Shown here: in pieces, positions 33,809-58,505 of the stretch | How positions within the stretch are numbered: the first letter of the stretch is position 1 | Layout: every line of letters starts with the position of its first letter | Source of the DNA: Dyadobacter fanqingshengii | Lineage (GTDB): Bacteria > Bacteroidota > Bacteroidia > Cytophagales > Spirosomataceae | NCBI RefSeq assembly: GCF_023822005.2 | Contig: NZ_CP098806.1 | Location: 2,790,001-2,854,000, forward strand | Direction: 5' to 3' | Length of the DNA: 64,000 bases | Notes under the pieces: generated by a model | Told to the model about the DNA's origin: nothing | Seen by the model: only the letters and a program-made list of their open reading frames with translations | The model's database searches: none | Program-made: the position numbers and the translations under genes

Positions 33809-36433
33809 TTAGTCAATCATCGCCTGTTTCAGATAAGGTGAAGCATAGGGCGATTTTATGACCTTCGACTTAAATTCGTCATTATTGATATGCGCAGCGC
33901 AACTGATTGGGTCTGTCAAGTTAATTACCGAATACAGACGGTAAAATTCCGGATCCGTTTGAAGGAGATCTACCAGTTCGGCCGTCAATGCTTCGACTGA
34001 TGGCTTTACCGCTTCACTTCGGAACAACTTTCGGTTTTTAAAGAAAGCGCCTATTGTTTCACCAATGCCAAAAAGGCTGCTTTCTGCTTCTGGCGATGGT
34101 TGCAAATCGGCTGCATCCGGCACGCCAACCAGCAGCGCATCGAAAGCGCGGAGGATACCATTGCCATAATATTTCTGCCATTCGGTAAAAGTTTCACCCT
34201 TGGCAGCCGCGGTGTACAGCGCATTGCGAACGGCTTCCACTTTTTTCCATTGATGACCGGGTTTGTAATAACCCTTTTGTTCGAGCTCATCGCGGTGATA
34301 TGCGATCCAGAGCGCCGCAGCCGAAGCGACCTGGGGTGTTGCCGAAGATGTTCCTCCCCCGCTTCGGAGAAATGGAATGGCTGTGGATGCCCACGGCGTG
34401 TTAGGCGTGTACGCGGCCAATGCGCGCGTCATGCGGGAAGCCGGGCCCCAGGAACCCTGCATATATTTAGTCCCAATGTTAAACCTGGCCTGCTGAATGA
34501 AATTGACATCGTAAGGTTGATGGTCATACATTGCGCCCGTGGCGGCAATTACCCGCTCATACGCAGCGGGAAACATAACGCATTTGGGCAGCAGCGCACC
34601 GGCGCCTTTGTACCAGCAGTTACTGGCGGCGGATACGATCACCAGTCCTGCATCATATGCATCATTAACTGCCCTTGCCATTTTCTTGCTGGGTTTGCCC
34701 GCCATAGACATCGTTACAACCTCGCAACCGATTTCAACGGCATACTCTAATGCATTGCAGAAGTTCTCACTGTTCATAATCACAACAGATTCGGAAATGC
34801 GGATTGGCACCACTTCCGCGAACGGTATCCCGCCAACAAAGCCTTCAAATTCATCGAATGTAGCTGATTTTGTCACATTATTTCCTGCAAGGAGCGTCAT
34901 AGTTCCCAGTCCGTGCCCATCCTGGCCAGAGGCGCTTTTGTCGATGGCCTGATTTGGGTCTTCTCCGGAAACATAACTTCTGGCAAGGGTTGTGTTGAGA
35001 TTTAAGGGTCTGGCGACGTGGCCTTCGATAAAGCCGGTGTCCAAATGGCCAACCCGGATATGCGCACCGGGCCTGTGCGTCTGTACAAATGCGTGGGCCT
35101 TGGCAAGCTGCGAATGTTTTTCGTCCAGATGCCAACCCATCCTTGCGTCAGGTTCACCCTGGTTTAGCGATGGCGGCCATTCCTTAATGTAATCGGGATT
35201 GTTGATATCCCCTTCCCGGCTGACCGCGCCATTTTGGGCCGGAGCCAAACTCAATACCGGCTCTACGATAGCATCATGCCCCAGCCTGTCCAGCTCCGTT
35301 TGGATGGCATGGACAACTGACCATGCATGTTCATTAGGAATCCCTGGAAATTCCAAAGTCGTTACCTGCCTGCTGCCTTTCACAACATTGCTGAGTACTA
35401 CCGCATCCTTTCCAGGAAAATAATCGCCGGCCAGCGCAACAGGCAGGTCAATCGTGAGGACGGCCGGTTTTTTTAAGGTAAGCATATCCCAGGGTGCTTC
35501 ACGCTCAAAACTAATCCTGGCTGTTTCCTTTTTTTGAAGACGTGGCTTTCGAAAACCTTTCACCTGATCGGCGTCGGGAATGTTGATGGTAAACGGGAAA
35601 TAATGTTCAAATGCAGGGATAATGCCTCCATATTGAAAAAAGTTGGGCCGGGGCATGAAATAGCGCTGCTGAACGGCCGCAATGAGCATTTCACAATTGG
35701 CATCTTTGTAAGCAGGATCTTTAAAGATTTCTATGAATGCTTCGGTGAAAATACCGTTGTTTTCCCCATCCAGCGTTGTTTCGTCATCCTGGCATGCGGC
35801 GAGTAATTTTACCGAAGCTTTTACCTGTGATCCCTGGGCCTTAGTCTGATATTTCTTTTGGATTGGTTTATAAATGCTTTCTCCAAACTTGACATAGATC
35901 CTTTTTTTAACATTCGTATCTAATTTCCGGGATCTTGCTCCTCCCGTCATTGCAGCTCGTTCCATGCCATTGGCAAGTATTTTACTGAGGTCAAGTTCTC
36001 CGTCTCTTGTTATTGTGCCAGCGTGGCAACTGTCCGAAACGATCAGTATCCGCGTGCCTTCTGAGAATTTTTCAAAGGCTTCGTAAAGCTCATCATCCAG
36101 TAACTGACGGTCATATAAGCACCAGGTCTGATCATTTTGTTCATTATCAAAACCTGCTGGTTTATCATTGGCCAGTTCCCCGCCATGACCCGCGTAGGTT
36201 AATAGCAGAATATCGCCCGCAACCATCTGTGTCGCATAGGAGTTGAGCGCGTGCTTGACCGCGTCCGATGTGGCGTATTCGTCATGCAGTTTACTGGTGG
36301 TATAGCCAAGGCCTATGGCAAAGGACTCCCAGAACAAAGCGTCGTTGACAGCTGCCTTCAACTCCGGCATGTCTCCGTAATGTGCTACATCGGCCCTGTT
36401 AAGACCAATATGTAATGAATATCCTGTTGACAT
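33809..36433 (-). CDS. Caspase - subtilase (S8) fusion protease
   Basis: 874 residues with two complete protease domains. Residues 1-290 are a caspase/metacaspase domain: LLLTYAGHGG has catalytic His83 and IVSDSCHAG catalytic Cys136. Residues about 430-770 are a subtilisin-type domain: HLDTG (Asp465), DGHGLGT (His507), SAASN (Asn605, oxyanion hole) and GGGTSSATP (Ser696). The linker (300-430) could be a propeptide-like or binding module. A helical tail follows. No signal peptide is seen, so it should be cytosolic. It is the last gene of a five-gene operon beginning with a CHAT protease and a STAND NTPase, and is probably an executioner. The caspase part may cut itself to free the subtilase. 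Confidence 0.9.
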   Translation of the reverse strand: MSTGYSLHIGLNRADVAHYGDMPELKAAVNDALFWESFAIGLGYTTSKLHDEYATSDAVKHALNSYATQMVAGDILLLTYAGHGGELANDKPAGFDNEQNDQTWCLYDRQLLDDELYEAFEKFSEGTRILIVSDSCHAGTITRDGELDLSKILANGMERAAMTGGARSRKLDTNVKKRIYVKFGESIYKPIQKKYQTKAQGSQVKASVKLLAACQDDETTLDGENNGIFTEAFIEIFKDPAYKDANCEMLIAAVQQRYFMPRPNFFQYGGIIPAFEHYFPFTINIPDADQVKGFRKPRLQKKETARISFEREAPWDMLTLKKPAVLTIDLPVALAGDYFPGKDAVVLSNVVKGSRQVTTLEFPGIPNEHAWSVVHAIQTELDRLGHDAIVEPVLSLAPAQNGAVSREGDINNPDYIKEWPPSLNQGEPDARMGWHLDEKHSQLAKAHAFVQTHRPGAHIRVGHLDTGFIEGHVARPLNLNTTLARSYVSGEDPNQAIDKSASGQDGHGLGTMTLLAGNNVTKSATFDEFEGFVGGIPFAEVVPIRISESVVIMNSENFCNALEYAVEIGCEVVTMSMAGKPSKKMARAVNDAYDAGLVIVSAASNCWYKGAGALLPKCVMFPAAYERVIAATGAMYDHQPYDVNFIQQARFNIGTKYMQGSWGPASRMTRALAAYTPNTPWASTAIPFLRSGGGTSSATPQVASAAALWIAYHRDELEQKGYYKPGHQWKKVEAVRNALYTAAAKGETFTEWQKYYGNGILRAFDALLVGVPDAADLQPSPEAESSLFGIGETIGAFFKNRKLFRSEAVKPSVEALTAELVDLLQTDPEFYRLYSVINLTDPISCAAHINNDEFKSKVIKSPYASPYLKQAMID

Positions 36434-36495
36434 CGGAAATGAGTTGGTTTTGAATTAGAAAAACTTAATCGAACATCAGGAGCGTCTGCCCGTAA

Positions 36496-39400
36496 TCAGG
36501 CGGGTTCCCTGAGAAAATCAAGCAACTGGCTTTGCGCCCGCTTTTCACGGAAATAGGCCAGATGCGTGCTGGCTATGGTGCGGGTGTGGGTTGTTGCATC
36601 GTAGCCGTCTATCGCGTTCATGCTTTCAATGGTCACCGCAAAGTCGTTCGGCTGGCCATCGTAAAGCGTGAATGTCAGTCCCGGGAAAAACACTTTTTTG
36701 ACTAATGCCTCCTTTACCTTTTTCAAGAACGGGTCGTCTCCGTCATACGCAGATCCAATTAAAGCAGTATCTCCGGCCACCACATTATACCTGACACCGG
36801 CGGGCTGGCGGGAGGTCTTTAACCTGCCTATAAATTCGGAGTCAGGCTTGGTGTCCTTCAAGGTCCGGCCTGGATCGGCTTTGAGTGCTTTGAGCAAAAA
36901 TGATAATCCGGAAATCGCAAACTTGATCGGGCCTGTCACATTAATGGCATGGGTAAGCATTCCAAAAACGGAAGAAACCAGTTTGGCCAGCTCTGATCCG
37001 GAACTTGCTGCTGCCACCAGAATAAGGTGATTTATGTAAATATTCCCCTGCTCCTTTTCAACCAGCCAGCGTGCCAGCAATCCGCCCTGGGAATGCGCTA
37101 TAATGGTGATTTTGGGCATTTCTATCTTGCCAAATCCAGCACTTGAGAGGAGTTTATGTAATTCCTGGGCAGCTTTATCAATGGGCGTTGAGAGATTTTC
37201 GTAATCGTACGTCAGAACGAAGGAAGCCTCTTCGGATAATTCCTGCAAAGCTTCAAGGGCTGAAACCATATGGCGGGTGTCGCCGGTAAGGCCGTGAATC
37301 AGCAGCAACACCCGGGACCCGGCTTTCGCTTTTATGATCCGCTCCATTTTGGATGGGTTGTCTTCCAACCGCTCCCAGGTGCCATCTGCACGAAAGCCAT
37401 ACAATGTCAAGTTGTTGATCCCTGATTTCTTTCGGAATAATTTTCTAAAAAACATTTTGAATGATCCGCCCAGGCTCCGCTCCAATGGACCATCGCCCTG
37501 GATCAGGCCGTCGGTTTCAGAAGGCAAAAAATCGATATGAATATTGCCGTCGGCATCCGAGGAGCCCAATGGGAAGAATAACTGCGATGTTTCATCGAAA
37601 CCGATTGGAATGATTACTTCTTCCAAAGCCTCGTCCACAGAACGCGTTAAATGCTGCGTTTTCGACGGTTTTATAATGATTGACTTACCGGCAGGAAGTT
37701 GCAGCGGCTCTCCGTTCAGTGAACGTAGTTCCAGGACCTGAACCTGACTATCGGTGGGTAAACCCAAGCCACTTGAAAAAGCATTTTCAGTAACATTTTC
37801 ACCCCATACAATTTCGGGCAGCACCATACTGGATATGATCGCGTCTGCCTCCGCATTGATCCCGCGCATCCCGGCTTTTTTCAGTTTCCGCTGTATATCT
37901 TCTCCTGTCACGGCAAAGGCTTTGGCACTGAATCCTTCCGGAACATCGATAGAAAATGCAGGAAAATATGTCGTAATACCCGGATCCAGCGTCTGTTCCT
38001 TGCTGGATCCAACGATGCGGAATTTGAAATCGAAAACTGTCCAGTCGGTCTGCGCTGTTTCAAGTGCCTCCTCCTCGCCAATTTCCCTATGCCGGTCAAC
38101 AAACTGCGTATCCAGTTGCAGCGATTCCTGCGCGTACCGGTCGAGATCAAGGATATTTGAAGACACCACTATTTTAAGATAATCAGTGACTTCATTGATA
38201 TTATACTGATCAAACCGTTTGTCTCTTGTCAGAGGAATTGTAGTGCTGATGCGGTCCGCAATAACATATGAAAGCTGCAACGGATTCGCGTTTTTGAGAA
38301 GGCGGCTGTTATCACTTCGAATGAGCTTTGTATTAATGCCATATTTGCTTCCCAGGTACAATGCGCCCACATAGCATGAAGTCAGCGCTGAATCGGGTGC
38401 TATGGTTATATTCAGGCGAAATGCGGGTTGTCTGGCATTCTTATAGTTAAAGATAACTTCATCCCCGGGTTGAACCAGCAGTGGTTCTCCCGTCAAACTG
38501 TCGGGCGATGCGTTGCTTCCATATTCACCCTCAATGCGTTCCAGATTGAAAATGAAATCACTTTTTTTAATTCGGGTGTCTGCATTTTTCAGCTCCAGCG
38601 TCGCCGTCCATTTCCCGACTGCGTTTACGTGATCAAGAAAAGTTACTGCATTTAACTGCCGCTTGAACAACGGCGCAGCGCTGCTTGCTCTTACCAGCAT
38701 CCATTCATGTCCGTCTGTGTTTTCGATCAAAAATTCTCTGGCACCCGCATTCTCAAAATCAATGTCAACATAAGGATATACGCCTGACCGGAAGGCCGCT
38801 TTAATTAGCTCCAACTGCGTATTCCGTCCGGCCAGATCTGGCGATATGCCCACCAAAAGCGCGGGTGCGGCCAGGCGTACGATCACTGCTTTCAGGTCTT
38901 CCCGCTCCAAATCAAAATTCGACATTGCGTTTTTATCCAGCACAGCGCTATCCGGTCCTACTTCGACCAAGTTAACCAATGCTTCAACTTCTCCGCCAAT
39001 GACCCTTATTGCTGTAAATACCCCTGCTTTGCCGGGTGTAAGGCCATGCTGTGTTCCTCCATTTATCTCCCAATTCGAACGGGCAAAGTTATACCTGATC
39101 TCGAACGAAGGCCGGTAAGGTTCCATTCCGGCTCCAAGAAATAGCTGGTCCAAATCCATATCCTCCCGTGCATACGCGACAGGGTTTTGCTGCGGATTTC
39201 GATTTCTAACTGTTAGGCCTATACTTTGCATCAGATCCCTATAACTTTTGGCGGTTCCACCGCTTCTCAGTGCCGTGACCAGCTTGGCTGTAAATAAACC
39301 ACCGTCATTCGTTTCCTGTGCTTTTTCCGAATCCTGCGCTGCCGCAAGGTGGACGTATCGTGCTATTTGTATCTGTGCCTTTCCATCTGAAATTTTATAA

Positions 39401-40047
39401 AAGCCGGGAGACTGGTAACCGATGTATTCTGTGAGCTTTATTTTGTTCCTGGACGAAGGAATAAACCGGTAGCGGCACCCGTCAATGCCGGTTACCATCT
39501 GCCTTGTATTATTGCCTGAGTGACAGCAATCCATGATGAGCAGCGCATGTACATCTTTATCCTGCAATGCATCCCAAATGAAGTAAGCCAGCTCTTTATC
39601 CAGAATATCGCGCGAAGCAGGGTTTAACGGGTCCCTGCTATCCACGCAAACAATGGTTTCATTTTGCTTATCGGGTTTGTTGTGCCAAAATTCCTCGGGT
39701 GCATCCACCTGCGAGCCGTGCCCGCTGAAATAGAACACGCAGATATCACCGTTCTTAGCTTGCTTCAAATGATTGAATGCTTTCTTTGAAACATTATCGA
39801 AGGTTGGCAATCCGTAAATTAGGTCAGTCCCCTGCTTTTCGTTATAGCCTTCGAGCCGCAAAAGGTCTGTTTCATCCGGTGCAAGCAAATAAAAGGGTTC
39901 GTATCGGAGTGCCCTGGTTTGCTGAGCGCACTGTTCTCTCAGCACCTGATCAATATCCAACACGTCCTTCACACAACCGCCTAACGGGGTTGTCGGATAG
40001 GCATTGATCCCAATAAGGGTAGCCCAAAGTGTACGGTTTTCAGACAT
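36496..40047 (-). CDS. Caspase - alpha/beta hydrolase fusion protein
   Basis: 1183 residues. The N-terminal caspase domain (1-305) has FYFSGHGSQ with His110 and LIMDCCHSG with Cys175. A long beta-rich middle (310-880) carries no motif I can name. The C-terminal alpha/beta hydrolase (about 905-1183) shows LLLIHGLTGD, the nucleophile elbow IIAHSQGG (Ser986), Asp near 1135 and His1162 in STHLAYF, like PGAP1-type lipases or esterases. No signal peptide is present. The stop-to-start gap to the caspase-subtilase gene is 62 bp, and it begins 12 bp after the LRR gene. A lipase arm would suit membrane damage once activated, but that is inference. Confidence 0.88.
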   Translation of the reverse strand: MSENRTLWATLIGINAYPTTPLGGCVKDVLDIDQVLREQCAQQTRALRYEPFYLLAPDETDLLRLEGYNEKQGTDLIYGLPTFDNVSKKAFNHLKQAKNGDICVFYFSGHGSQVDAPEEFWHNKPDKQNETIVCVDSRDPLNPASRDILDKELAYFIWDALQDKDVHALLIMDCCHSGNNTRQMVTGIDGCRYRFIPSSRNKIKLTEYIGYQSPGFYKISDGKAQIQIARYVHLAAAQDSEKAQETNDGGLFTAKLVTALRSGGTAKSYRDLMQSIGLTVRNRNPQQNPVAYAREDMDLDQLFLGAGMEPYRPSFEIRYNFARSNWEINGGTQHGLTPGKAGVFTAIRVIGGEVEALVNLVEVGPDSAVLDKNAMSNFDLEREDLKAVIVRLAAPALLVGISPDLAGRNTQLELIKAAFRSGVYPYVDIDFENAGAREFLIENTDGHEWMLVRASSAAPLFKRQLNAVTFLDHVNAVGKWTATLELKNADTRIKKSDFIFNLERIEGEYGSNASPDSLTGEPLLVQPGDEVIFNYKNARQPAFRLNITIAPDSALTSCYVGALYLGSKYGINTKLIRSDNSRLLKNANPLQLSYVIADRISTTIPLTRDKRFDQYNINEVTDYLKIVVSSNILDLDRYAQESLQLDTQFVDRHREIGEEEALETAQTDWTVFDFKFRIVGSSKEQTLDPGITTYFPAFSIDVPEGFSAKAFAVTGEDIQRKLKKAGMRGINAEADAIISSMVLPEIVWGENVTENAFSSGLGLPTDSQVQVLELRSLNGEPLQLPAGKSIIIKPSKTQHLTRSVDEALEEVIIPIGFDETSQLFFPLGSSDADGNIHIDFLPSETDGLIQGDGPLERSLGGSFKMFFRKLFRKKSGINNLTLYGFRADGTWERLEDNPSKMERIIKAKAGSRVLLLIHGLTGDTRHMVSALEALQELSEEASFVLTYDYENLSTPIDKAAQELHKLLSSAGFGKIEMPKITIIAHSQGGLLARWLVEKEQGNIYINHLILVAAASSGSELAKLVSSVFGMLTHAINVTGPIKFAISGLSFLLKALKADPGRTLKDTKPDSEFIGRLKTSRQPAGVRYNVVAGDTALIGSAYDGDDPFLKKVKEALVKKVFFPGLTFTLYDGQPNDFAVTIESMNAIDGYDATTHTRTIASTHLAYFREKRAQSQLLDFLREPA

Positions 40048-40059
40048 AGCAATTCTGTT

Positions 40060-41775
40060 TTAGTTAGATGCCGCAACAATCTGTTCTATCATTTTTTTGA
40101 CTTCGTCGGTACGAGGCAGGATATTTTCCTTAAAAAGCTTTTCAAAATCCATTTGAAGACGGGCGATCTGCCGGCGCGGGTTCCTAGAACTGCCTATAAA
40201 CGAAATATAGGCATCCTTTGCCTCTTCCAATCTGTTCTGTCCAAGAAGCGCGTGAGCCAGGCTTATTTTCAGCTGGTTATCCAGAGGGTCTTTTTCCAGG
40301 CCTCCGGCCGCAGCCATTTCTGCCCTCCTGAAATCTTTTTTCAGCATGTATTGATCCGCAATGTTCTGGCATGCCTGGGCAATCCTGTAATTGAGTTCGG
40401 CATTATCCGGAATGTCGAGCTCGTAAAGATCCATAATGTCGCTTCTAAGCCGGGTGTTGAATGCAATGAGCGAATCTGCATCTTTTACTGTTCTTGTTTT
40501 GATCAGCACTTCGCCCCACCATACGTTTGCCTTGGCAACCGCGAGCGCAATATTGATTTCATCGTCTTCGGGAACTTCGCTGTGATATTTTTCCAGCGTA
40601 TCCCGAAGCACGCGTTGCAAACTGATATACTTATTATTGTCGCTGTTACCGATCTGCCTGACCTGCGTAAGAATAGACTGCGGAAATTTCTGGTAGTCTT
40701 TAAAAAGAATGTCACAATCCTTTGGAAGCCATGACTTGATCTTTGCGACTTCCTGGGTAGAAATGCGATTACCCTCCAAATTGACATACCGTAAAGTGGT
40801 GAGCATTTTGACGTCTTCCGGCAAAGTCCTGAGCTGATTATTGGACAGATCCAGTTTGGCAATCTTCTGGAGGCGGCACATGCCATTCACCTGAAAAGAA
40901 GCAATTTCAGCTATCTGATTTCCTGACAAATTCACGGTTATCACATTATCCAGTTCTAAAAAACCCCTGGGAAAGCTAGTAAGGCCATTGTTTGTGAAAC
41001 TCACCGATTCTAATTGCGGAAGCAGCCTTAACCGGCCGATCAACCTACGCGATAAGACACTATTATCCCTGTAATTGGGCTCAACAAAAAGAATCTTTAA
41101 CTGTTTGTTCCCGATTATATTCTTGACATCGGCCCCATTTCGCAATGTCGTGATCAATGCTTCGCAGGTAGGATCGATGGTAAGCTGGCGGATGCTCCTG
41201 GCCAGCGGATACAGCGCTTTGGTTGTATCCAGCAAATATTCCTTTGCCTTTCCCGAAATATGATCGGCTTTAACCTGAGCGTAACCGTATTTCTGGCCAA
41301 ATGGAGTCGCTTCACTGAATTTATAGCCAATAAGTGTATCACCCGCCATATTCACAAAGCCATAGCGGCCCTGCTTGAATGCCAGCGCATAACGGTTGTT
41401 GTAAAAGTAAAAGGCGTCTACAATCTTTTGTTTTAACAGGTTAACCATTTTGAGGCTATCCCTGCTCAGCTGGATTTTGATCGCTGCCTCTTTGGCTGCA
41501 TTTTGGGAATCTATGGCGTCCTGCTTCTGCTTGTCAATCGCATTGTTTGTCCTTTTGAGCAATGCCTCGAAGGCTGTCGACTTTGCATTACAAATCAGGA
41601 GCGCAGCCTCACAATAATCCCTCGCGCGGGTATAATTGGAACTGTCAAAAGAAATCGTGGCTTCGGCCAGCATTTTCGCGCAGGTCGAATCTTCGTAGGG
41701 CTGATATTGCTGTCTTTTTTGACCAGCAGCGTCGTAAAAAGCCCATACAAATGTCAGAAGTAGGCAGTATTTCAT
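40060..41775 (-). CDS. Exported WG / leucine-rich / TPR repeat protein
   Basis: 571 residues. An N-terminal signal peptide (MKYCLLLTFVWAFYDAAGQ) suggests export. Residues 125-175 resemble a WG-type repeat (RYGFVNMAGDTLIGYKFSEATPF in outline). Four to five leucine-rich repeats span about 225-345 (LESVSFTNNGLTSFP, VITVNLSGNQIAEI, IAKLDLSNNQLRTLP, LRYVNLEGNRIS). TPR-like helices occupy 400-545. Start overlaps the STAND gene stop by 4 bp. It is a candidate sensor or scaffold whose export side would match the C-terminal tail of the STAND protein. Confidence 0.82.
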   Translation of the reverse strand: MKYCLLLTFVWAFYDAAGQKRQQYQPYEDSTCAKMLAEATISFDSSNYTRARDYCEAALLICNAKSTAFEALLKRTNNAIDKQKQDAIDSQNAAKEAAIKIQLSRDSLKMVNLLKQKIVDAFYFYNNRYALAFKQGRYGFVNMAGDTLIGYKFSEATPFGQKYGYAQVKADHISGKAKEYLLDTTKALYPLARSIRQLTIDPTCEALITTLRNGADVKNIIGNKQLKILFVEPNYRDNSVLSRRLIGRLRLLPQLESVSFTNNGLTSFPRGFLELDNVITVNLSGNQIAEIASFQVNGMCRLQKIAKLDLSNNQLRTLPEDVKMLTTLRYVNLEGNRISTQEVAKIKSWLPKDCDILFKDYQKFPQSILTQVRQIGNSDNNKYISLQRVLRDTLEKYHSEVPEDDEINIALAVAKANVWWGEVLIKTRTVKDADSLIAFNTRLRSDIMDLYELDIPDNAELNYRIAQACQNIADQYMLKKDFRRAEMAAAGGLEKDPLDNQLKISLAHALLGQNRLEEAKDAYISFIGSSRNPRRQIARLQMDFEKLFKENILPRTDEVKKMIEQIVAASN

Positions 41776-43676
41776 AAATCTGATCGGGTTTCAAGCGTCG
41801 CATTGTCCTTTATTTTATTCCTTATCTCCTTATTGAGAGGATATTTCCTGGCCGCGTTAACCAGAATTGCCCTTTCCAGCTCATGGTTATCAAGGGCGTG
41901 CATCTTGTCGGCGGCACGCATGTACTTTTTCACTTCCTCACTGATACGCCGACTGTCTGACTGCGCTGCCCTGGCCTGTGCGCTCCTGACCAAATACAGT
42001 GTTCTCTCCAAACTATCCGCCGACGATAATGCCAGATCGTTCGCCACTTTCAGCTTCTGACTTATCTCTATTTGCTTATTATAGTTGTTTAGATTTTGCT
42101 GTTTTTCTTTTTCCAACAAGACGGTTATCTCCTTCTGCAAGGCAAGTGCTTCCTGCAAGTCCGCTTTGTTTTTGTAAAACTTCCCGCCGAAAATAATCGC
42201 GGCGATCAAGAAGCCAAGACAAAGCAGGCCGAGAATGTATGCGCGTTTTTTCCGCTTTTCAGAGCTTAGCAATGCTGTTTGGAGCTCGGTTACTTTCTTA
42301 TCATTGTCATCCCGACTGAATTCAATGTAATCCAGAACAGGCTTTTCAAACTCCATCTTGCTTTTATACCTTTCATAGATCTCAATGAAGCCGGCTGACA
42401 AAAAACCGCTGTTGCTTTCCTGGAAGATCTGGTAGTTCGAAAGAATGCTTTGTTCTATGTTTCTGATCAGGACCTGCTCTGCTGTAAGGCCTTCCTGTAC
42501 AATGGTGGCAAGAGAATCATGGGCAAGTTCCAGAAAAGAAGCCTCTTTTCTGATGATCCGCGCGCTTTCGAGCTCGTTCACATAATGGGATACCATTTCC
42601 AACTCCTCAAAATTCCCCATTTCCAACCTGATCATATTACCGTCGTTGACAGTATACTTCACAGGCTGCTTTGTTCCCTGTTGTGTTATGAAATTGCTGT
42701 AAAATTGCTGTTCAAAACCTTCCCAATCGGCATCGCTGAATTCTTGTGCAGGTCCATTCTGAAGCAGGGCCCTGATCTCAGCCTTTTTTTTGGTAAAATA
42801 CCTTTTCAATACGTCCGAAACCTGGCCTACCTGGGTGAATATCCCCTCGCTGATCGTAACCTCAGGAATATTTCTTCCATACCACTCACCATTGCCGTGA
42901 TCCACGGCGTAACTGTCCCTCCATAAATTATCCAGGTAAACCTGCAAGTATGCCAATTGTCTTTCAGCTCCCCCGGTAAGCAAATTTTCTATAATTTTTG
43001 AAACGGGAATTGCATTTCTGATATTGAATGCAAGGAATGTCTTCTCAACAACCTCCTCCACATCCTTCCGCGTCATAGGTTCTATTCTCAACCTGAAATC
43101 GAACAGATTGGGCAGATACGACTCATCTTCATAAGTGTATAGCTGCGCAATGTATTCCTCCCGGATGCAGAACAATATCTTGGTAGGAATATCCGTATCC
43201 AGGATCGTCTTGATCACTTTGAAGAACGCCGCGCGCTCTTCCTCTGCTTTCATCGCTAACTGACCGGATGATTCCTGGGCGGCAAGCGACTTGTTGGTAA
43301 AGATTTCTTCGAACTGGTCGAAAATCAGATAGATAGGACGCAGGTAATAATTATAAATGCGGTTCAGGCACTCCACCGGATCTTCCTCTATCTGACTGTC
43401 GCCGGGAATGAGATTTCTGAATTCGTTGCATAAGGACGTCAGTATGTGCTCATTTCTACGGATCGTAACCGGCAGCCAATCATGAAAAGTAAGCTTCTGC
43501 GAAAGCCCGCCTTTGATCAGACTTGTCTTACCCGTTCCCGATTTTCCGTAAATGAGAATGAGATTCGAGGAGTTTAGCAGTTCCCTGAGGACCGAAATTT
43601 CCGTGCTGCGTCCAAAGAACAGATCTTTATCTTCGGGCTGATAGGGGTCCAGAAATTTAAAAGGGCTCTTTAACAT
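41772..43676 (-). CDS. Membrane-anchored STAND NTPase (nSTAND1-like)
   Basis: 634 residues. The NTPase has Walker A YGKSGTGKTS (Lys50), Walker B YLIFDQFEEI (Asp120, acidic 123-124), an Arg in ILFCIREEY (172) and the winged-helix motif LELAHDSLA (383-391), all typical of nSTAND proteins. A basic KRKKR stretch precedes a single TM helix at about 479-499, so the NTPase faces the cytosol and the C-terminal 135 residues, partly coiled coil, face the periplasm. Nucleotide-driven oligomerisation would activate the protease encoded just upstream. It overlaps both neighbours by 4-7 bp. Confidence 0.9.
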   Translation of the reverse strand: MLKSPFKFLDPYQPEDKDLFFGRSTEISVLRELLNSSNLILIYGKSGTGKTSLIKGGLSQKLTFHDWLPVTIRRNEHILTSLCNEFRNLIPGDSQIEEDPVECLNRIYNYYLRPIYLIFDQFEEIFTNKSLAAQESSGQLAMKAEEERAAFFKVIKTILDTDIPTKILFCIREEYIAQLYTYEDESYLPNLFDFRLRIEPMTRKDVEEVVEKTFLAFNIRNAIPVSKIIENLLTGGAERQLAYLQVYLDNLWRDSYAVDHGNGEWYGRNIPEVTISEGIFTQVGQVSDVLKRYFTKKKAEIRALLQNGPAQEFSDADWEGFEQQFYSNFITQQGTKQPVKYTVNDGNMIRLEMGNFEELEMVSHYVNELESARIIRKEASFLELAHDSLATIVQEGLTAEQVLIRNIEQSILSNYQIFQESNSGFLSAGFIEIYERYKSKMEFEKPVLDYIEFSRDDNDKKVTELQTALLSSEKRKKRAYILGLLCLGFLIAAIIFGGKFYKNKADLQEALALQKEITVLLEKEKQQNLNNYNKQIEISQKLKVANDLALSSADSLERTLYLVRSAQARAAQSDSRRISEEVKKYMRAADKMHALDNHELERAILVNAARKYPLNKEIRNKIKDNATLETRSDL

Positions 43677-45451
43677 AATTCAAATGAATCTCTGTCTAAC
43701 ACTATTTTGGAAAGATCCAGGAACTGCTCTTCTAAGGCATAGTAGGCTTCATCGGATTTAATCAGTTTCAGCGTGGCATCGGCATTTGGCTGAATGAAGG
43801 TTCTGGGTTTAATGATGTAATTGGTTTCATCTGATTCGGAAATATCCCGGTAGACGATCTTCTGTTCGTTTTTGCTGAAAGCGATGGGATAAAACAGGGC
43901 TGTTGTCGTAGCTTTTTCGATAAAACAGTTCCAGTCGATCAGAAATGGATAAAGATTGAGGTAACCATTGTAATCCCTATTCAGGAATCGCTCTTTGTTC
44001 GTGAGTATCACCGTGTTACTCGTGTAGTAATCCAGGACGTTCCTCGGATAATCGTTGGCGGTCGGGCCCATGTACAGAAACAGCCTGTGCGCATACTTGG
44101 GCAATTTTTTTCGCCTGAACTGAATGAGGCTGATGTTACGAATTGATATAAGTCTGCACTTGCAGAAAATCAGAGAGAGCTTCACCCACAGCGCCAGCTT
44201 TTCCTCGATTTTCCCACAAATTTTCCGCGCTGTTCTCTCGTTTTGCAGATTGCTGAAATCGCTAAAAAACTGGATGGATTCCCGATAGGACTCTTCATCG
44301 CGTTGAATTTGACTATAAATATGATTGTTGATTTCGGCAGCAAATGAAAATTGTATTTCCGGCTGTTTCTCAACCAGTAATTTTAATGCAGATTTATAAA
44401 AGGTGAGCACATCCGAATCAAAAAGCAGCTTCGCACTGCTGACAATCTCCTCCATGAGCTGTTTATCGCCCGTTTCAGTATCCTGTTTATCAAAAACTTC
44501 CAGCAACTCAGCCACCAGCACGGCAGAAATAATCTTTCGGATCGTTTGATATGCCGAATGCATATGGTTTATCCTAAGCAGGAAAGGTGTTTTATTGAGA
44601 GAAATTCTGATCTCTTCTTCCGTTTCTTTTGTAAACAGCTTGCTGAGCTGCGACCCGATCGGCTGCGGAAAGGCGGAAAGAAATTTGTTTGCATGGAATT
44701 TGAACAGAACGTCATCATCGTGCGCCAGGTTATCACTGGGATACTCCTGAACCACATCAGGCAGCAACTGCAATAAAACACCGAATAACAAGATGTTAGG
44801 CTCGTAAGTTTTGGTTTCGTCCAGGGTGGCGGAGCTAAGCGCCGGGGCGCTTGAATCCTGGTAGGACACTATCCACTTGTTGTCTGAAATTTCTGGTTCG
44901 TCTGAACCCAAATCCCGGTTGACAGATTGCACACTAACAGCAGTAGTAGCATTAGCAGCTATCCTCGCTCTCTCGAATGACTCATTGAAAGCGCCATGAT
45001 TTTGAAAAAAATGACGGTAAAATGTTATGGCAAAATCAGTGGCAGGCGTGTCGTTGATTTTCGAATTCGTCGCGACAATGCATGGTATATCCTGCTTTGT
45101 GTAAAATTGAAGCTGACCATCGGAATTGCAGCCGTTGAGTATCACCAATTTTAATGAATAGCAATAACTAAGTTGGTCTGCGATGCTTTCGGCTCGGGTA
45201 TTGAACTGACGCGTTGCAAAATACTCATGATTGGAATGGCCACTGATGTGGAAAATGCAAAGGTCAGACTCATTTTCTGAAATTTCTTTCAGCACTTTAT
45301 CCGGTGTGGGATCAATCACATCAATGTGCTTGAATTCACTGTGAAGATCCCGCATGATACGGGCAATCTCCTCCTTTTCCCGCACCAAGCTGGGAAGCAG
45401 CTCCTCAGTCTGGCTGAATGCAAATACAGTAATTAACACAGGTAGGCCCAT
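43670..45451 (-). CDS. CHAT-domain (caspase-like) protein
   Basis: 593 residues. Residues 1-170 form a CHAT peptidase domain. LCIFHISGHSN has catalytic His72, LVILNGCNSDG catalytic Cys108, and PATDFAITFYRHFF...ESFERAR is the characteristic C-terminal helix pair of CHAT. The remaining about 420 residues are helix-rich and not assigned. It is the first gene of the operon and overlaps the STAND NTPase gene by 7 bp, so stoichiometric coexpression is expected. In CHAT-STAND pairings the peptidase is usually the output or relay step. There is no signal peptide. Confidence 0.85.
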   Translation of the reverse strand: MGLPVLITVFAFSQTEELLPSLVREKEEIARIMRDLHSEFKHIDVIDPTPDKVLKEISENESDLCIFHISGHSNHEYFATRQFNTRAESIADQLSYCYSLKLVILNGCNSDGQLQFYTKQDIPCIVATNSKINDTPATDFAITFYRHFFQNHGAFNESFERARIAANATTAVSVQSVNRDLGSDEPEISDNKWIVSYQDSSAPALSSATLDETKTYEPNILLFGVLLQLLPDVVQEYPSDNLAHDDDVLFKFHANKFLSAFPQPIGSQLSKLFTKETEEEIRISLNKTPFLLRINHMHSAYQTIRKIISAVLVAELLEVFDKQDTETGDKQLMEEIVSSAKLLFDSDVLTFYKSALKLLVEKQPEIQFSFAAEINNHIYSQIQRDEESYRESIQFFSDFSNLQNERTARKICGKIEEKLALWVKLSLIFCKCRLISIRNISLIQFRRKKLPKYAHRLFLYMGPTANDYPRNVLDYYTSNTVILTNKERFLNRDYNGYLNLYPFLIDWNCFIEKATTTALFYPIAFSKNEQKIVYRDISESDETNYIIKPRTFIQPNADATLKLIKSDEAYYALEEQFLDLSKIVLDRDSFELC

Positions 45452-47179
45452 ATAGCATCAGATGAAGGTCTATGAATAGCAAGTGTATTAACCTGAACGG
45501 CTGGGTGGGGTTATTCGCAAACATTCCCGTTTTTGCAAGAATGCTTATCAACTTAAATTTAATAAACCTGCGTGTGGCGACCTATGTTTGCGCTTTTTAC
45601 TTACTTAACGGTAGGATGTGTTGGGGGGACATTGGAGAAGGTTTACTTGATTCAAAGGCCCTCCGGAACTTCTTAGATAAACAAAGCTTTCTAGCTCTCT
45701 GTGAATCTGTCCTTTTAATCAATTGAGAATTGAGGGTATTCTTGATTGAAACTGCCTCCGGTTTTGTGAACGTTACAGATTGCACCAGCTTTACAGAGGC
45801 TGGGCTGGGATGCCGTGGAATATTGTAGAATTTTTAAGAGGGTATTGAGGATTGCTGATGTTTTTTCGAATAACATTCGCAGTCTATCTTTAGTAGCAAC
45901 TTATTGACGTTTTGTAAACGTTTTGGGACTTGGTAGTTTTAGAGAGGGATTCGAACGGCTGACCTAAAACACTCACATCCAAGTATTTAGTATTTCCCTA
46001 AAAACTCATTCCATGATACACGAAACATCAAAAATCCCGCTCTACGCTAATTCAGTTAACCAGTTGGCTATCAAATGATTACAACTCCCTGCTTCTTAAA
46101 GTTAAAACTTTGATTTTAAAAGTCAAAAAAGTGATGCGTGATTCATGGAATTCTGAAACTAAAGCAAACGTTCTTACTATTGATCTTTTCATATTCTTGC
46201 TACATCCGGCGGTTTGACAAGCCCTATCACCAGGTCGCTTAAATGTTCGGTAGGCCGTCAGCAATAACTTTTTGACTTCCCCACTAGAAAGTGATAGTAA
46301 TGGATGATTAAAATCGTATGCTCGGGAGTAAAGCTATCTCCTGGTTCCGCTAGCCAAGACGTTACTGCTGGTCAAAAACTTTGAGCTAACCGAATAACGA
46401 ATTATATCCTTCATTTGACCTATTGCCCAAAGGCACGACTTGGCAAATAGGTTAAAAACAAAATCGAAAGCACTCTGTAACTTAAGACGCCAGCGCTCGA
46501 GAGCATGCTTTCGACGTAATACGGTTCTCCTGTGCTACGACATATGAATCACTTAGCATTAAACAATCGAAAAATCATTGACTGCCGGCGCTAGGAGCCT
46601 AAGAGTTACCTACACTGAGTTCCCGGAACTGATCGTTGCCAAGTATGTAAACATTTACAATCATCACGTATTGTCACGTTTTTCGAATGACTCAGGTAAC
46701 AAAAGCATTCCAGTAGAAAGAGACGTCATGTACATATGATTCAACTAAATACCGTTAAATAAGAAAATAAAGTAATCCCGGTAAAATTGTGACAATTATA
46801 TTACATTGTTGACAACTCGACCATACAATTAAAAGACGCCAGTTGAGAGCCATAATAAGGTCAATTAGAACCGATGTAATGCCTTTTCTCGAAATTCTTC
46901 CTGACAGGTATTTACTTTCTTGAATAACTCTGGTACTCCTGTTTGACGTTTTGTTATAAATCTGATTTTTTTAAACTGATATTTCTTACGCTCGATTTAT
47001 AGAGACCCCAAATGACTGCAGTTTACACTATTACTAGACGTTATAACACAATGGGTCAACTATGTCAAAGGAAAAATTAGACTTTCTTTTTTCTGATTAA
47101 ATAGATACAGCGAGTATATTGATCCAAATCTCGCTCAAAAATAAATGTAGTAGTCCAAATAATAGTAAAATTATTAACT
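45452..47179. other. 1.7-kb AT-rich gap without convincing genes
   Basis: This stretch has frequent stops in all frames. An 84-residue frame at 45472-45726 (+) shows no domain and is not called. It holds the 5' region of the CHAT operon, with no good promoter boxes, and a tRNA-3'-end-like fragment at 45941-45957. Beyond that I see nothing coding, and the base composition resembles decayed or foreign DNA. Confidence 0.6.
45941..45957 (-). other. tRNA 3'-end-like fragment, possible attachment-site remnant
   Basis: On the minus strand the sequence reads CGTTCGAATCCCTCTCT, the T-loop and 3' T-stem of a tRNA. The 5' T-stem does not pair (CGGCT against GAGGG), so this is not an intact tRNA. Such tRNA 3' ends are common integrase targets. 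A 13/14 match (GAGGGATTGGAACG) lies at 56009-56022. Confidence 0.3.
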
Positions 47180-50401: not shown

Positions 50402-51301
50402 ATGTGTAACAAACGAGGGTGTCAATGTGAAGAAAATTTCGATGCAGAAATTGCATTCAAAAGACTGAGTGAAAAATATAATGATCTTGCCGAAATTGTT
50501 GCCAACTATTTATCAGAAGCTGATATTGCTGACAGGTCTATTCGTGCGAAATCTGCACAGCGAATGGCAGAGTTGCTCATTAGAATAGTGGGCGGTTCAA
50601 GAGTCGCGGAGGGCGAATACCCTGAATGCTGCTTGGTTGGAACAAAAAATGTAAATGGAACTTCAGATTGGTTTTGTACAGGCATTTTGGTTCATCCAAG
50701 AATTGTTTTGACAGCGGCTCATTGTTTCCAGCCGGGGAGTTCCTATGTTGTCGCATTAAACACCGTGAATCAAAATGGATTGTCAAAAGCAGAAATTATT
50801 GATGTAAAGAAAGCGGTTCAACATGCAGGGTATCAACAAACAGGAAAATTCAATGATATTTCAGTTCTAGTATTGAGCAGAACAGCTGCTACCGTTCCAA
50901 TCCAAATTGCATCCTCAGACGAAATAAATACTGCCCTGAATACAACGTTAGTAGGCTTTGGAAATGATGACGTAAATAGTACTGTTGGATTTGGCATCAA
51001 AAGAGTGGTGAGCGTTCCCATAAACAGTATCAGAAGAGCAATTCATGATAATTTGGACGCGGATGAAAACTATTACGATTATGAATCTGATTTGGAGTTC
51101 GTTGCAGGAGGAAACGGCTATGACTCATGCAATGGGGATAGTGGCGGACCTGCATACATAGTAGTTGATGGAGTGAGAAAGCTGGCTGGATTGACATCAA
51201 GATCAACGGCGAGGGCAAACACGCGCTGCGGTGATGGAGGCATTTACACACGCGTTGATGCGCACCTTAACTTCATAAGCGCGCTCACTCCTATTTCCTG
51301 A
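50402..51301 (+). CDS. Trypsin-like (S1) serine protease with zymogen-type activation site
   Basis: 299 residues. The N-terminal 60 residues are helical and followed by R61-IVGG, the classical trypsinogen cleavage point. The triad is complete: LTAAHCF (His107), FNDISVLVL (Asp152) and CNGDSGGP (Ser247). Asp241, six residues before Ser247, matches trypsin Asp189, so cleavage after Arg or Lys is predicted. That specificity fits its own activation site. There is no evident signal peptide, which is unusual for trypsins and suggests action inside the cell, as in conflict systems where a helical adaptor precedes the protease. It follows a small TM protein by 52 bp. Confidence 0.9.
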   Translation: MCNKRGCQCEENFDAEIAFKRLSEKYNDLAEIVANYLSEADIADRSIRAKSAQRMAELLIRIVGGSRVAEGEYPECCLVGTKNVNGTSDWFCTGILVHPRIVLTAAHCFQPGSSYVVALNTVNQNGLSKAEIIDVKKAVQHAGYQQTGKFNDISVLVLSRTAATVPIQIASSDEINTALNTTLVGFGNDDVNSTVGFGIKRVVSVPINSIRRAIHDNLDADENYYDYESDLEFVAGGNGYDSCNGDSGGPAYIVVDGVRKLAGLTSRSTARANTRCGDGGIYTRVDAHLNFISALTPIS

Positions 51302-52264: not shown

Positions 52265-53587
52265 TTAGATGGCTTGAACTAAACCGCACCCCGAATCATA
52301 TGGGGATAAATTTAGTGACTTGGCATTTCTAGTAAGATAGTTACGAAACTCCATAGCTGGCATGTCGGGGTAGGCTTCGGCCACTAGCGCTGCAATACCA
52401 GAAACAAGAGGCGTAGCCATACTGGTTCCACTATCGACAAAGTAATTTTGAGGGCCGATATAGGAACTTCTGATATCAACGCCTGGTGCGACTAAATCTA
52501 CTGAACTGCCGCAAGAGAACAGGTCCAGAGTACCACAAGAGAAATCCGCAATACGGCCGTCTCGACTTATCGCTCCGACAGATAGAATCGATGGACAATT
52601 TGCAGGAGAATTCACTGGTTTCACTATGTTACCAGGACGATCACTATCGTTTCCGGCAGCCGCAATGATGATCGTGCCATGCTGCAACGCTCTCCGCGCG
52701 ATAGTCTCATACATTTCTTGAAAAGGGTCTGTAACCTCGACTGACCCACCCAAGGACATAGAAATAATCTTGCAATTATTACTAATCGCCCACTCAATCC
52801 CTTCAGTAAGTGACCCGTCTGTACCCTCTCCATTGTCATTCAGCACTTTACCAACGAATAGGTTAGCTTCAAACGCAACACCATATCTTTCACCAAGACT
52901 CGATGTTTTCGGGCCTGCAGCAATTCCGGCACAATGGGTACCATGGCCCAGCCGGTCGTCCGCTGAGGTAGCCCCTTCTGCGAAAAATGCACTTTGAATG
53001 GAACGATTGGCGAAATCAGGATGATCAAAATCAAAACCTGTGTCCAACACAGCCAAATTCACTCCTTTTCCAGAATATTTAGATGCCAAAACATTGGTCA
53101 TTTCCAAATGCCAAGCTCCGCTCAGTGCTAGATCTGTCCGCTCTGTCTTCGAACTAGCTCCAATTGTAGCGCCACTCGGTTCTAACGACTTCTCATATAA
53201 ATGCTTTACTGCGTCAAAATAACCCTGCATGTAGAAGGGATTAAGATTGTTTAGTGCATATACCTTCTGTTCTGGGCGCATCACCAATATATCTTTATCG
53301 TCTTCAATTCTCTTCATCAATTGTGCATCTTTTCCATCCAATACTATAACTCCTAGCTGTTGTAAATACAAGCCCTGAGCTCCTTCATTAAATGCTTGTA
53401 CCGAAAACCCCTTCTTTTTGTTGTTATAATCATTTGACGATGCGATTCGAAGTGATGTCTTTCTCTCAATAGTGTTCTTAATTTTCTTGTCCTGAAAATT
53501 TTTTACGACTGCAATGTATCTACCCGTTGTTTTTGACCCATCAATCGAGGATCCCCTCTTTACGGGATTTATGGAAAACTGGCTCAT
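52265..53587 (-). CDS. S8-family subtilisin-like protease
   Basis: 440 residues. Residues about 20-113 are an I9-like propeptide (RYIAVVKN ... ILVMRPEQKVYALN). The catalytic domain has LAVLDTGFDFDHPDF (Asp182), GHGTHCAGI (His215), AAAGND (Asn313) and GTSMATPLVSG (Ser389). There is no clear signal peptide, so it may work inside the cell. It is followed on the same strand by the 81-residue inhibitor-like gene and a terminator, forming a two-gene unit convergent with the trypsin-like gene. Confidence 0.92.
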   Translation of the reverse strand: MSQFSINPVKRGSSIDGSKTTGRYIAVVKNFQDKKIKNTIERKTSLRIASSNDYNNKKKGFSVQAFNEGAQGLYLQQLGVIVLDGKDAQLMKRIEDDKDILVMRPEQKVYALNNLNPFYMQGYFDAVKHLYEKSLEPSGATIGASSKTERTDLALSGAWHLEMTNVLASKYSGKGVNLAVLDTGFDFDHPDFANRSIQSAFFAEGATSADDRLGHGTHCAGIAAGPKTSSLGERYGVAFEANLFVGKVLNDNGEGTDGSLTEGIEWAISNNCKIISMSLGGSVEVTDPFQEMYETIARRALQHGTIIIAAAGNDSDRPGNIVKPVNSPANCPSILSVGAISRDGRIADFSCGTLDLFSCGSSVDLVAPGVDIRSSYIGPQNYFVDSGTSMATPLVSGIAALVAEAYPDMPAMEFRNYLTRNAKSLNLSPYDSGCGLVQAI

Positions 53588-57846: not shown

Positions 57847-58505
57847 AAGTCGAAACGTTTAAGTATTGCCGTGACCTTCTCTTCAATGATCCTATGCACT
57901 TGATCTGGATGATCCGCTACATCCGATTTCCATACCCGAAGTTGTCCAGCCAGCTCAGCTGGTTGATAGTAGCTGTCATACTTTGCCAGTAATTCTTGGG
58001 CATTACGAAAGATGTTTTTGGTCGTTTCAAGAATGCTGGTCTTGTTTTGAGATTCCGGAAGAATCCGCTGAATGTATAGCGTCAACTGGTGCATCCACTC
58101 CTGCACATTATTGAGGGTCTTATGGAATGTCCTGATCTCAAAATCTTCAAATATCCAGAGCGTGATGACCTGCGAAAGTAAGCGCAGGTGCTGACTGCTC
58201 TGCATCCATTGCCGACTTTGCATCTGATGATCCTTTGTTTTCAAAACCGCAAGCGACAAAATGCCACTAAGCTGTTCGAGCGTCCGGATCATCTCCGCCG
58301 TTCGGGCGGGCAATGTTTTCTTTTGTGGTCGTTTGATGGGTGTGTCAAGTGCCAGTGTCAAAAAGAATTGGCTTGCTGAAAGTCCGCTCTTTTCGATCAA
58401 CTGTTTAATCCTCGCTTTTTCATCTTTGGTAACCCATACAGAAAAGTGATCCCTTCGCACAACCTTCTCCTCTTTCGGTGGTCTTCCTTTTCTTTTGCTT
58501 TCCAT
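57843..58505 (-). CDS. MobC-like relaxosome accessory protein
   Basis: 220 residues. The basic N-terminus (KRKGRPPKEEKVVRRDHFSVWVTKDEKARIKQLIEKSG in outline) has a ribbon-helix-helix-like DNA-binding segment as in MobC/MbpB proteins. The rest is helical. It should bind oriT, probably the hairpin region immediately upstream at 58520-58640, and help the relaxase. Overlaps the relaxase gene by 4 bp. Confidence 0.82.
   Translation of the reverse strand: MESKRKGRPPKEEKVVRRDHFSVWVTKDEKARIKQLIEKSGLSASQFFLTLALDTPIKRPQKKTLPARTAEMIRTLEQLSGILSLAVLKTKDHQMQSRQWMQSSQHLRLLSQVITLWIFEDFEIRTFHKTLNNVQEWMHQLTLYIQRILPESQNKTSILETTKNIFRNAQELLAKYDSYYQPAELAGQLRVWKSDVADHPDQVHRIIEEKVTAILKRFDL

What the first reader, a model, noticed from the sequence alone, without database searches (positions are those of the whole stretch)
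33809..45451. Five-gene operon: CHAT protease, membrane STAND NTPase, LRR/TPR protein, caspase-hydrolase, caspase-subtilase
Seen: five genes on one strand, four junctions of -7, -4, +12 and +62 bp, with intact catalytic motifs in three caspase-clan domains, one subtilase, one alpha/beta hydrolase and one STAND NTPase. Known: STAND NTPases pair with CHAT/caspase or trypsin proteases in bacterial conflict and regulated cell-death systems. Inference: a sensor (LRR/TPR), a switch (STAND), an initiator (CHAT) and two executioners (lipase-like and subtilase) make a layered cascade like apoptosis. I do not know a described system with this exact gene set.
Basis: partly seen in the sequence, partly recalled or inferred. 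Interest (0 to 1): 0.95.

Follow-up and report, generated by a model that had tools for sequence, protein, structure and literature searches.

The report
Predicted membrane-spanning bacterial cell-death operon
Five neighbouring bacterial genes look like an alarm that reads something outside the inner membrane and, through a molecular switch crossing that membrane, sets off protein-cutting enzymes inside the cell; parts of the design recur in relatives with exchangeable pieces, but nothing about it has been tested in the laboratory.

Summary
The five genes, junctions and catalytic residues are as described. The genome, probably Dyadobacter, has only two C14 caspase matches, both here. Comparison changes the picture: the LRR/TPR protein has a signal-peptide-like start and STAND one membrane helix after its NTPase, so the sensor is predicted to lie outside the inner membrane. 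Of 46 CHAT-protein/STAND pairs (window included), 18 are followed by a sensor gene; all 18 pass my signal-peptide rule (STAND and caspase-hydrolase proteins: none; CHAT: 5 of 50). STAND is 527-641 aa in these and 760 aa or more in 27 of the other 28. WG-LRR and WD40 sensors share one N-terminal module. A caspase gene lies in the same stretch for 33 of 40 CHAT pairs, but in 7 of these the only caspase is itself exported-looking. The exact five-gene set was found only here; four of the five recur together in another genus (L163). Best reading: a split, membrane-spanning NLR-like receptor activating CHAT, then caspase-linked lipase and subtilase. Trigger, cascade order and outcome are inference. 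New variant of STAND-protease conflict systems.

The parts
43670..45451 (-). Gene 1, CHAT protein (593 aa), predicted cytoplasmic initiator protease
   Evidence: Its start MGLPVLITVFAFSQ is as hydrophobic as a signal peptide (12-residue score 2.26) but has no K/R before the core, is not among the 5 CHAT proteins that pass the rule, and corresponds to the first strand of the CHAT fold
45128..45238 (-). CHAT catalytic stretch, H72 to C108
   Evidence: both invariant in 10 of 10 aligned
43673..44944 (-). C-terminal part of the CHAT protein (about aa 170-593), which stays next to STAND where the CHAT domain is replaced (L190, L191, L192, L185, L101)
   Evidence: the AlphaFold model of this part is low confidence
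41772..43676 (-). Gene 2, nSTAND1 STAND NTPase with one membrane helix (634 aa)
42477..43676 (-). STAND NTPase domain (about aa 1-400): Walker A GKSGTGKTS, Walker B region DQFEE
42186..42242 (-). Predicted transmembrane helix aa 479-497, preceded by KRKKR (N-terminus inside)
   Evidence: 45 of 47 STAND proteins have exactly one such segment, 39 of those 45 have more K+R before it than after
40060..41775 (-). Gene 3, WG-LRR-TPR protein (571 aa), predicted exported sensor
41722..41775 (-). Signal-peptide-like start, aa 1-18, cleavage AAG|Q by my reading
   Evidence: its hydrophobic score (1.78) is the second lowest of 18 sensors
41416..41685 (-). Helical hairpin with Cys pair and long helix (aa 31-120), module shared with WD40-type sensors
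   Evidence: hhalign probability 97.5; helices 31-42, 45-59, 66-120
41200..41391 (-). WG-type beta region, aa 129-192
   Evidence: a matching segment follows the STAND membrane helix in fused P0009
40705..41136 (-). Leucine-rich repeats, aa 214-357
40066..40689 (-). C-terminal helical (TPR-like) region, aa 363-570
36496..40047 (-). Gene 4, C14 caspase + alpha/beta hydrolase (1183 aa), predicted executioner
39118..40047 (-). Caspase domain of gene 4 (H110, C175)
36499..37335 (-). Alpha/beta hydrolase domain (DUF7379-like), likely triad S986/D1135/H1162
33809..36433 (-). Gene 5, C14 caspase + S8 subtilase (874 aa), predicted executioner or processing protease
35564..36433 (-). Caspase domain of gene 5 (H83, C136)
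34064..35173 (-). Subtilase domain of gene 5 (D465, H507, S696, N605)

Best explanation
A membrane-spanning, split NLR-like receptor wired to a protease cascade that kills or arrests the cell. SHOWN by sequence: five intact genes; CHAT and STAND adjacent and inherited together in relatives; STAND with one membrane helix after its NTPase; a signal-peptide-like start on the WG-LRR-TPR protein and none on genes 2, 4 and 5; catalytic residues in place. INFERRED: the exported sensor docks, through its N-terminal helical hairpin and coil, on the periplasmic stalk of STAND. A ligand or damage on that side of the inner membrane (phage entry or exit, an attacker's toxin, envelope breach) lets STAND bind nucleotide and assemble in the cytoplasm. 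The CHAT protein, held through its C-terminal part, is brought together and switched on. CHAT cleaves and activates the two caspase-led enzymes, freeing the lipase-like hydrolase and the subtilase to attack lipids and proteins.
For: Pairing: 46 CHAT-protein genes followed by STAND on the same strand, of 63 CHAT-protein hits in 70 sources; the 40 with a CHAT domain have junctions of 20 bp or less; distance matrices correlate, r 0.978 (40 pairs) and 0.896 (24 left after dropping 16 near-duplicates), 0 of 2000 permutations reach either. Topology: 18 of 18 separate sensors pass a composite signal-peptide rule, against 5 of 50 CHAT, 0 of 21 caspase-hydrolase, 0 of 15 amidase-caspase, 0 of 6 caspase-subtilase, 0 of 48 STAND and 160 of 688 other ORFs over 200 aa; 45 of 47 STANDs have exactly one helix. 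STAND is 527-641 aa with a separate sensor, 760-1232 aa in 27 of the other 28 pairs. Fusions: P0009 is STAND, helix, WG and LRR in one chain; L170 and L190 also join STAND to WG-LRR. Executioners: a caspase gene in the same stretch for 33 of 40 CHAT pairs; caspase-hydrolase on the same strand next to CHAT-STAND-sensor in L163, L175, L176, L179 (upstream there, downstream in the window). Subtilase-caspase fused to a DUF7379 hydrolase in L093 and L096 (Pfam) and by profile in L097, L207, L208. Both C14 caspases of the genome are here. Patchy: the pair is in 12 of 48 genomes of the genus. Precedent: chain 8tl0 is SAVED-CHAT (passages of PMC11417357).
Against: No experiment. Signal peptides and helices rest on my own scripts, written after seeing the sequences. 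The first rule was unspecific: it also fired on 17 of 50 CHAT and 12 of 21 caspase-hydrolase proteins. By hydrophobicity alone the window CHAT start (2.26) exceeds the window sensor (1.78). 6 of 45 single-helix STANDs do not have more K+R before the helix. In L162, L164, L165, L166, L171, L182, L183, L184 the caspase after a long STAND has a signal-peptide-like start, so a cytoplasmic CHAT could not simply cut it; leaving out pairs with only that type, 26 of 40 have a caspase. The triads L083 and L084 have no caspase of these types in 58-59 kb. Gene 5 was seen beside CHAT only here; its nearest homologues (about 60-66% identity, some in Chitinophaga) have unknown neighbours. 17 of 63 CHAT-protein hits are not followed by STAND. 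CHAT model poor (pLDDT 45); only 'caspase' among PADLOC matches below 1e-3; no promoter above chance; no proof of island insertion.
Confidence: 0.5

Rival explanations
1. Core plus passengers: CHAT-STAND-exported sensor is the working system with its own unknown CHAT substrate, and the caspase-hydrolase and caspase-subtilase genes are a second, separately moving protease module that merely lies downstream.
For: L083 and L084 keep the triad without these caspases nearby; caspase-subtilase has its own distribution (173 proteins, best 120 listed) and in L095 lies with a caspase and a hydrolase but no CHAT hit; gaps to genes 4 and 5 (+12, +62) exceed those in the core (-7, -4).
Against: 26 of 40 CHAT pairs have a non-exported-type caspase in the same stretch; caspase-hydrolase adjoins CHAT on the same strand in L163, L175, L176, L179; the host's only two C14 caspases are here.
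Confidence: 0.26
2. Envelope quality control rather than death: the exported sensor reads envelope stress and the proteases tune regulators, with survival as the outcome.
For: A transmembrane switch with an outside sensor also suits stress signalling; caspases that look exported at 8 loci could act in the envelope.
Against: Patchy presence (12 of 48 genomes of the genus), and exchange of effectors (hydrolase, subtilase, amidase, GDSL) and of sensor repeats favour conflict or cell death.
Confidence: 0.14
3. One reading: an all-cytoplasmic apoptosis-like cascade with an intracellular LRR/TPR sensor.
For: Domain set; analogy with known STAND defence proteins that sense inside the cell (recalled). 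The export evidence is from simple scripts.
Against: Signal-peptide-like starts on 18 of 18 separate sensors and a membrane helix between NTPase and repeats in fused forms.
Confidence: 0.07
4. The lytic proteins are delivered into other cells and the CHAT-STAND unit controls their release.
For: Relatives encode an amidase-caspase-GDSL protein, an odd enzyme for the cytoplasm.
Against: No signal-like start on those proteins and no secretion or injection family among 10 neighbours scanned with Pfam.
Confidence: 0.03

Closest known systems
SAVED-CHAT / type III-B CRISPR cascade of proteolytic cleavages (Steens 2024 Science; not held; seen only as a reference and in passages of PMC11417357)
   Same: Homologous CHAT domain (8tl0, E 5.5e-17). 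Recalled: there CHAT activates a caspase-like protease by cleavage after oligomerisation.
   Different: No SAVED match and no CRISPR match in the five proteins; STAND with an exported-looking sensor instead of cyclic-oligoadenylate sensing; caspases fused to hydrolase and subtilase.
nSTAND1, VMAP and EACC1 conflict systems of multicellular prokaryotes (Kaur 2020 PMC7159879, Kaur 2021 PMC8195603; passages only)
   Same: STAND NTPases, caspases, and (VMAP systems) a caspase always with a neighbouring alpha/beta hydrolase; exchangeable effectors; some components placed at the membrane with extracellular domains.
   Different: No MoxR or vWA match here; EACC1-type caspase score far below cut-off; the passages read describe no CHAT-nSTAND1 pair with a separate exported sensor.
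DGR-diversified conflict systems (PMC10907252; passages only)
   Same: nSTAND1/NACHT, CHAT and S8 peptidase named at such loci; several sensors predicted periplasmic or secreted, so the idea of outside sensing is theirs already.
   Different: Diversified CLec sensors; no CHAT-STAND-exported WG-LRR/WD40 core in the passages read.
Avs and other antiviral STAND proteins (recalled)
   Same: Sensor-switch-effector logic.
   Different: Single-chain and cytoplasmic (recalled); no Avs match for the five proteins.
Apoptosome / NLR-caspase cascades (recalled; apoptosome in a passage of PMC7159879)
   Same: Repeat sensor, STAND switch, caspase-clan proteases.
   Different: Predicted to work across a membrane with a separate sensor; caspases carry lipase-like and subtilase domains.

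Membership tests
nSTAND1 STAND NTPase | Profile match with Walker A and B | tested here: met
   PF20703 1.6e-30; motif residues invariant in 9 of 9 aligned
CHAT protease (PF12770) | Profile match above the curated cut-off | tested here: inconclusive
   Window protein 18.0 bits against 24; relatives 51.1 and 39 bits; family profile hits 8tl0 at 5.5e-17
CHAT protease (PF12770) | His/Cys dyad | tested here: met
   H72/C108 invariant in 10 of 10
C14 caspase | Profile match and His/Cys dyad | tested here: met
   4.6e-16 and 8.6e-19; dyads invariant
SAVED-CHAT proteolytic cascade | SAVED sensor and type III CRISPR genes | tested here: not met
   No such match in the five proteins at E 0.1
SAVED-CHAT proteolytic cascade | CHAT cleaves and activates a caspase-like protease | not testable with these tools
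   Needs biochemistry
EACC1-caspase system | EACC1-type caspase above curated cut-off | tested here: not met
   21.6 and 30.7 bits against 140
MoxR-vWA-VMAP ternary system | MoxR and vWA components | tested here: not met
   No such match in five proteins or 10 neighbours; whether a VMAP model is in the library was not checked
Antiviral STAND (Avs) | Avs profile match | tested here: not met
   PADLOC scan of the five proteins at E 0.1; a neighbouring trypsin has a weak Avs1b match, 1.6e-4
Anti-phage defence system | Protection against phage | not testable with these tools
   No experiment
Split transmembrane STAND receptor (proposed here) | Exported-looking sensor gene after a short single-helix STAND; no WG-LRR or WD40 sensor gene directly after a long one | tested here: met
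   18 of 18 and 27 of 27; one pair cut by a contig end. 8 long STANDs are followed by an exported-looking caspase instead

The most novel reading that the evidence does not exclude
A modular class of bacterial transmembrane NLR-like receptors: cytoplasmic STAND plus the C-terminal part of the CHAT protein and an exported docking hairpin as constants; exchangeable sensor repeats outside the inner membrane (WG-LRR, WD40, others; fused or separate), exchangeable initiator (CHAT or another N-terminus) and exchangeable caspase-led lytic executioners (alpha/beta hydrolase, subtilase, amidase-GDSL). It reads threats outside the inner membrane and starts a two-step protease cascade inside, in some lineages perhaps reaching an exported caspase too.
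Probability: 0.45. Interest if true: 0.86.

Novelty: new variant of a known kind. Interest (0 to 1): 0.7.

Why it matters
The bacterial STAND immunity proteins whose mechanism is known sense invaders inside the cell (recalled). A STAND switch with an exported sensor would be a bacterial counterpart of a surface immune receptor driving a caspase-clan cascade. It would make two questions testable: how a signal outside the inner membrane can trigger death, and whether initiator-executioner protease layering arose in bacteria. Split and fused forms are natural controls.

Tried and rejected
Genome-contig scans with gene 4 and gene 5 found no relatives; they rely on exact short patterns. A viral-contig scan with the CHAT alignment found none. 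Phylum sample with the CHAT alignment: 12 of 395 genomes, the window's own included. Gene 5 at E 1e-40: 2 of 395 (phylum) and 4 of 395 (class), own genome included, so the Chitinophaga homologues could not be put in context. Island insertion: a flank ending at about 33.44 kb matches in one piece in 12 of 46 relatives, but in the ten stretches from six relatives compared no shared synteny resumed: inconclusive. CHAT fold: model too weak, no fold search made. Promoter pattern (consensus recalled): 4 matches, 3.61 expected, none upstream of gene 1. Rfam: none. Pfam and NCBIfam gave no convincing match for the N-termini that replace CHAT; that L190's resembles DUF4062 and that L101's neighbour resembles a nucleotide cyclase is recollection only. 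My first signal-peptide rule proved unspecific on checking and was replaced by a stricter one, itself written after the fact. In one search, 2 of 10 WD40-type sensors (second gene of L175, first of L176) were left out before the profile comparison.
Full report
OBSERVATION. The five genes exist as described on the - strand, with junctions of -7, -4, +12 and +62 bp. Pfam supports caspase + subtilase, caspase + alpha/beta hydrolase, LRR/TPR, nSTAND1 and, below cut-off, CHAT. Two relatives score above the CHAT cut-off, and the family profile reaches chain 8tl0, a CHAT domain-containing protein (E 5.5e-17). The hydrolase triad is most likely S986/D1135/H1162. The host genome (6.27 Mb) has two matches to the C14 family, both in this operon.

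HOST.

CORE UNIT. I searched 79 genomes (78 relatives and the window's own) with each of the five proteins, then 395 genomes of the phylum and 222 of the family with a CHAT alignment: 12 of 395 and 52 of 222 matched, own genome included, with at most 3 and 5 candidates scored per genome. I took stretches of 11.5-20 kb around selected hits, covering 40 of the 52 matching family genomes; with the window this made 70 sources. Scripts found 63 ORFs with a CHAT-protein hit; 46 are followed on the same strand by a STAND gene, 40 of them with a CHAT catalytic domain, and 17 are not. CHAT-to-STAND spacing in the 40 ran from -127 to +20 bp; starts are those of the longest ORF. Distance matrices of the two proteins correlate at r 0.978, and 0.896 after dropping 16 near-duplicates; no permutation of 2000 reached either. 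Shared ancestry adds to this, so it shows joint inheritance, not contact.

TOPOLOGY. The window STAND has one strongly hydrophobic segment at aa 479-497 after KRKKR. Of 47 STAND proteins, 45 have exactly one such segment, L185 none and L166 two; 39 of 45 have more K+R before it than after. The window's LRR/TPR protein starts like a signal peptide (MKYCLLLTFVWAFYDAAG|Q). My first rule passed 18 of 18 separate sensors but also 17 of 50 CHAT and 12 of 21 caspase-hydrolase proteins. A stricter rule (K/R, uncharged hydrophobic core, cleavage site), written afterwards, passes 18 of 18 sensors, 5 of 50 CHAT, 0 of 21 caspase-hydrolase, 0 of 15 amidase-caspase, 0 of 6 caspase-subtilase, 0 of 6 caspase-GDSL, 0 of 10 caspase-WD40, 0 of 48 STAND and 160 of 688 other ORFs over 200 aa. 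By hydrophobicity alone the sensors separate from the CHAT, caspase and STAND groups tested with AUC 0.96-1.0, but from other ORFs only with 0.84, and the window CHAT start is as hydrophobic as a signal peptide; in the model it is the first strand of the CHAT fold. Trained predictors are needed.

FUSED AND SPLIT FORMS. STAND is 527-641 aa wherever a sensor gene follows (18 pairs) and 760-1232 aa in 27 of the other 28; L101 is cut by a contig end. None of those 27 is directly followed by a WG-LRR or WD40 sensor gene; 8 are followed by a caspase gene with a signal-peptide-like start (L162, L164, L165, L166, L171, L182, and L183, L184 after an inner Met by my reading). For 9 of the 27 no repeat profile matched beyond the NTPase, so a fused sensor is assumed there. 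P0009 carries STAND, helix, WG and LRR in one chain, with the IVDAFYFY motif of the window's sensor.

EXCHANGEABLE PARTS. Of the 18 separate sensors, 8 match the WG-LRR profile and 8 of the other 10 a WD40 profile; the last two have beta-propeller matches in Pfam, mostly below curated cut-offs for the L176 one. The N-terminal modules of 8 WG-LRR and 8 of the 10 WD40 sensors are homologous by hhalign (probability 97.5, E 5.2e-12 for a single comparison; a control stretch of the same WD40 proteins gave 0.2). Two cysteines 30-38 residues apart occur in 16 of 18 by my reading. A model of the window sensor (mean pLDDT 74.8) shows the hairpin, a long helix, a beta region, LRRs and a helical end; Foldseek matches are mostly LRR proteins, with a few TPR proteins, at low TM-score. 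At the other end, L190, L191, L192, L185 and L101 keep the C-terminal part of the CHAT protein with another N-terminus; in L101 that N-terminus and the end of the next protein share AEKIYNI...A.F, as expected of an adaptor pair (my reading; no family match).

EXECUTIONERS. A caspase-type gene is in the same stretch for 33 of 40 CHAT pairs (31 of 38 stretches), caspase + alpha/beta hydrolase for 17 of 40 (15 of 38). Leaving out 7 pairs whose only caspase looks exported, 26 of 40 remain. L163, from another genus of the family, has caspase-hydrolase, CHAT, STAND and WG-LRR on one strand: four of the five window genes. Elsewhere the caspase is fused to a GDSL domain, with or without an amidase. 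Four same-genus relatives of gene 5 are 1842-1921 aa proteins with two subtilase domains and a caspase; Pfam finds a C-terminal DUF7379 hydrolase in L093 and L096, profiles find it in L097, L207 and L208. This links the modules of genes 4 and 5. Against: L083 and L084 lack these caspases in 58-59 kb, and gene 5 was seen beside CHAT only here, while homologues at about 60-66% identity exist in Chitinophaga and unnamed sources.

MECHANISM. The most economical reading is a receptor in three polypeptides: exported sensor, membrane-spanning STAND, cytoplasmic CHAT. Sensor engagement would let STAND assemble and bring CHAT molecules together; CHAT would cut and activate the caspase-led lipase and subtilase. 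Only anatomy is shown; docking, assembly, direction of cleavage and outcome are inference. SAVED-CHAT is the precedent for a CHAT-to-caspase cascade (recalled; named and cited in PMC11417357, passages).

KNOWN OR NEW. Passages of Kaur 2020 say that caspases in VMAP systems always have an alpha/beta-hydrolase neighbour and that some systems have extracellular domains; passages of Kaur 2021 name nSTAND1; passages of PMC10907252 name CHAT, nSTAND1 and S8 peptidases and predict periplasmic or secreted sensors. None of the passages read describes this unit. I call it a new variant of STAND-protease conflict systems.

CONTEXT. A relaxase and an integrase-like gene lie at 57-60 kb and GC is 0.35-0.40 at 46-56 kb: an accessory island is plausible but unproven. 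The CHAT-STAND pair occurs in 12 of 48 genomes of the genus.

Noticed in passing
L162, L164, L165, L166, L171, L182, L183, L184: The gene after a long STAND is a caspase (Pfam 8.8e-15 in L164) whose start looks like a signal peptide, i.e. a possibly exported bacterial caspase.
   Followed up: partly
window 50402-51298 (+) and 52268-53587 (-): A trypsin-like protease and a second subtilase in low-GC DNA; PADLOC gives LmuA 1.1e-11 and 'subtilase' 5.8e-31 as best matches.
   Followed up: partly
window 57004-59691 (-): Relaxase and phage-integrase-like genes near the operon.
   Followed up: partly
window 45452-47179: About 1.7 kb upstream of gene 1 without an ORF of 100 aa or more and without an Rfam match.
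   Followed up: no
L085, L089, L098, L104, L105, L106, L107: Recurring island with genes on both strands: CHAT, long STAND, caspase-hydrolase, caspase-WD40 and amidase-caspase-GDSL.
   Followed up: partly
L093 7304-13057 and 13904-17461: A 1917-aa protein with two subtilase domains, a caspase and a DUF7379 hydrolase, close to a multi-helix membrane protein and a patatin-like protein.
   Followed up: partly
L190, L191, L192, L185, L101: CHAT domain replaced by other N-termini while the C-terminal part and the STAND neighbour stay; L101's neighbour shares an adaptor-like motif.
   Followed up: partly
G010:C39 577527-578433: A degraded caspase-hydrolase copy with several stops, some 5 kb from a short CHAT protein (L091).
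   Followed up: no
L210, L211 (Haliscomenobacter hydrossis plasmids): CHAT-like N-termini on proteins annotated as TPR proteins, carried by two plasmids.
   Followed up: no
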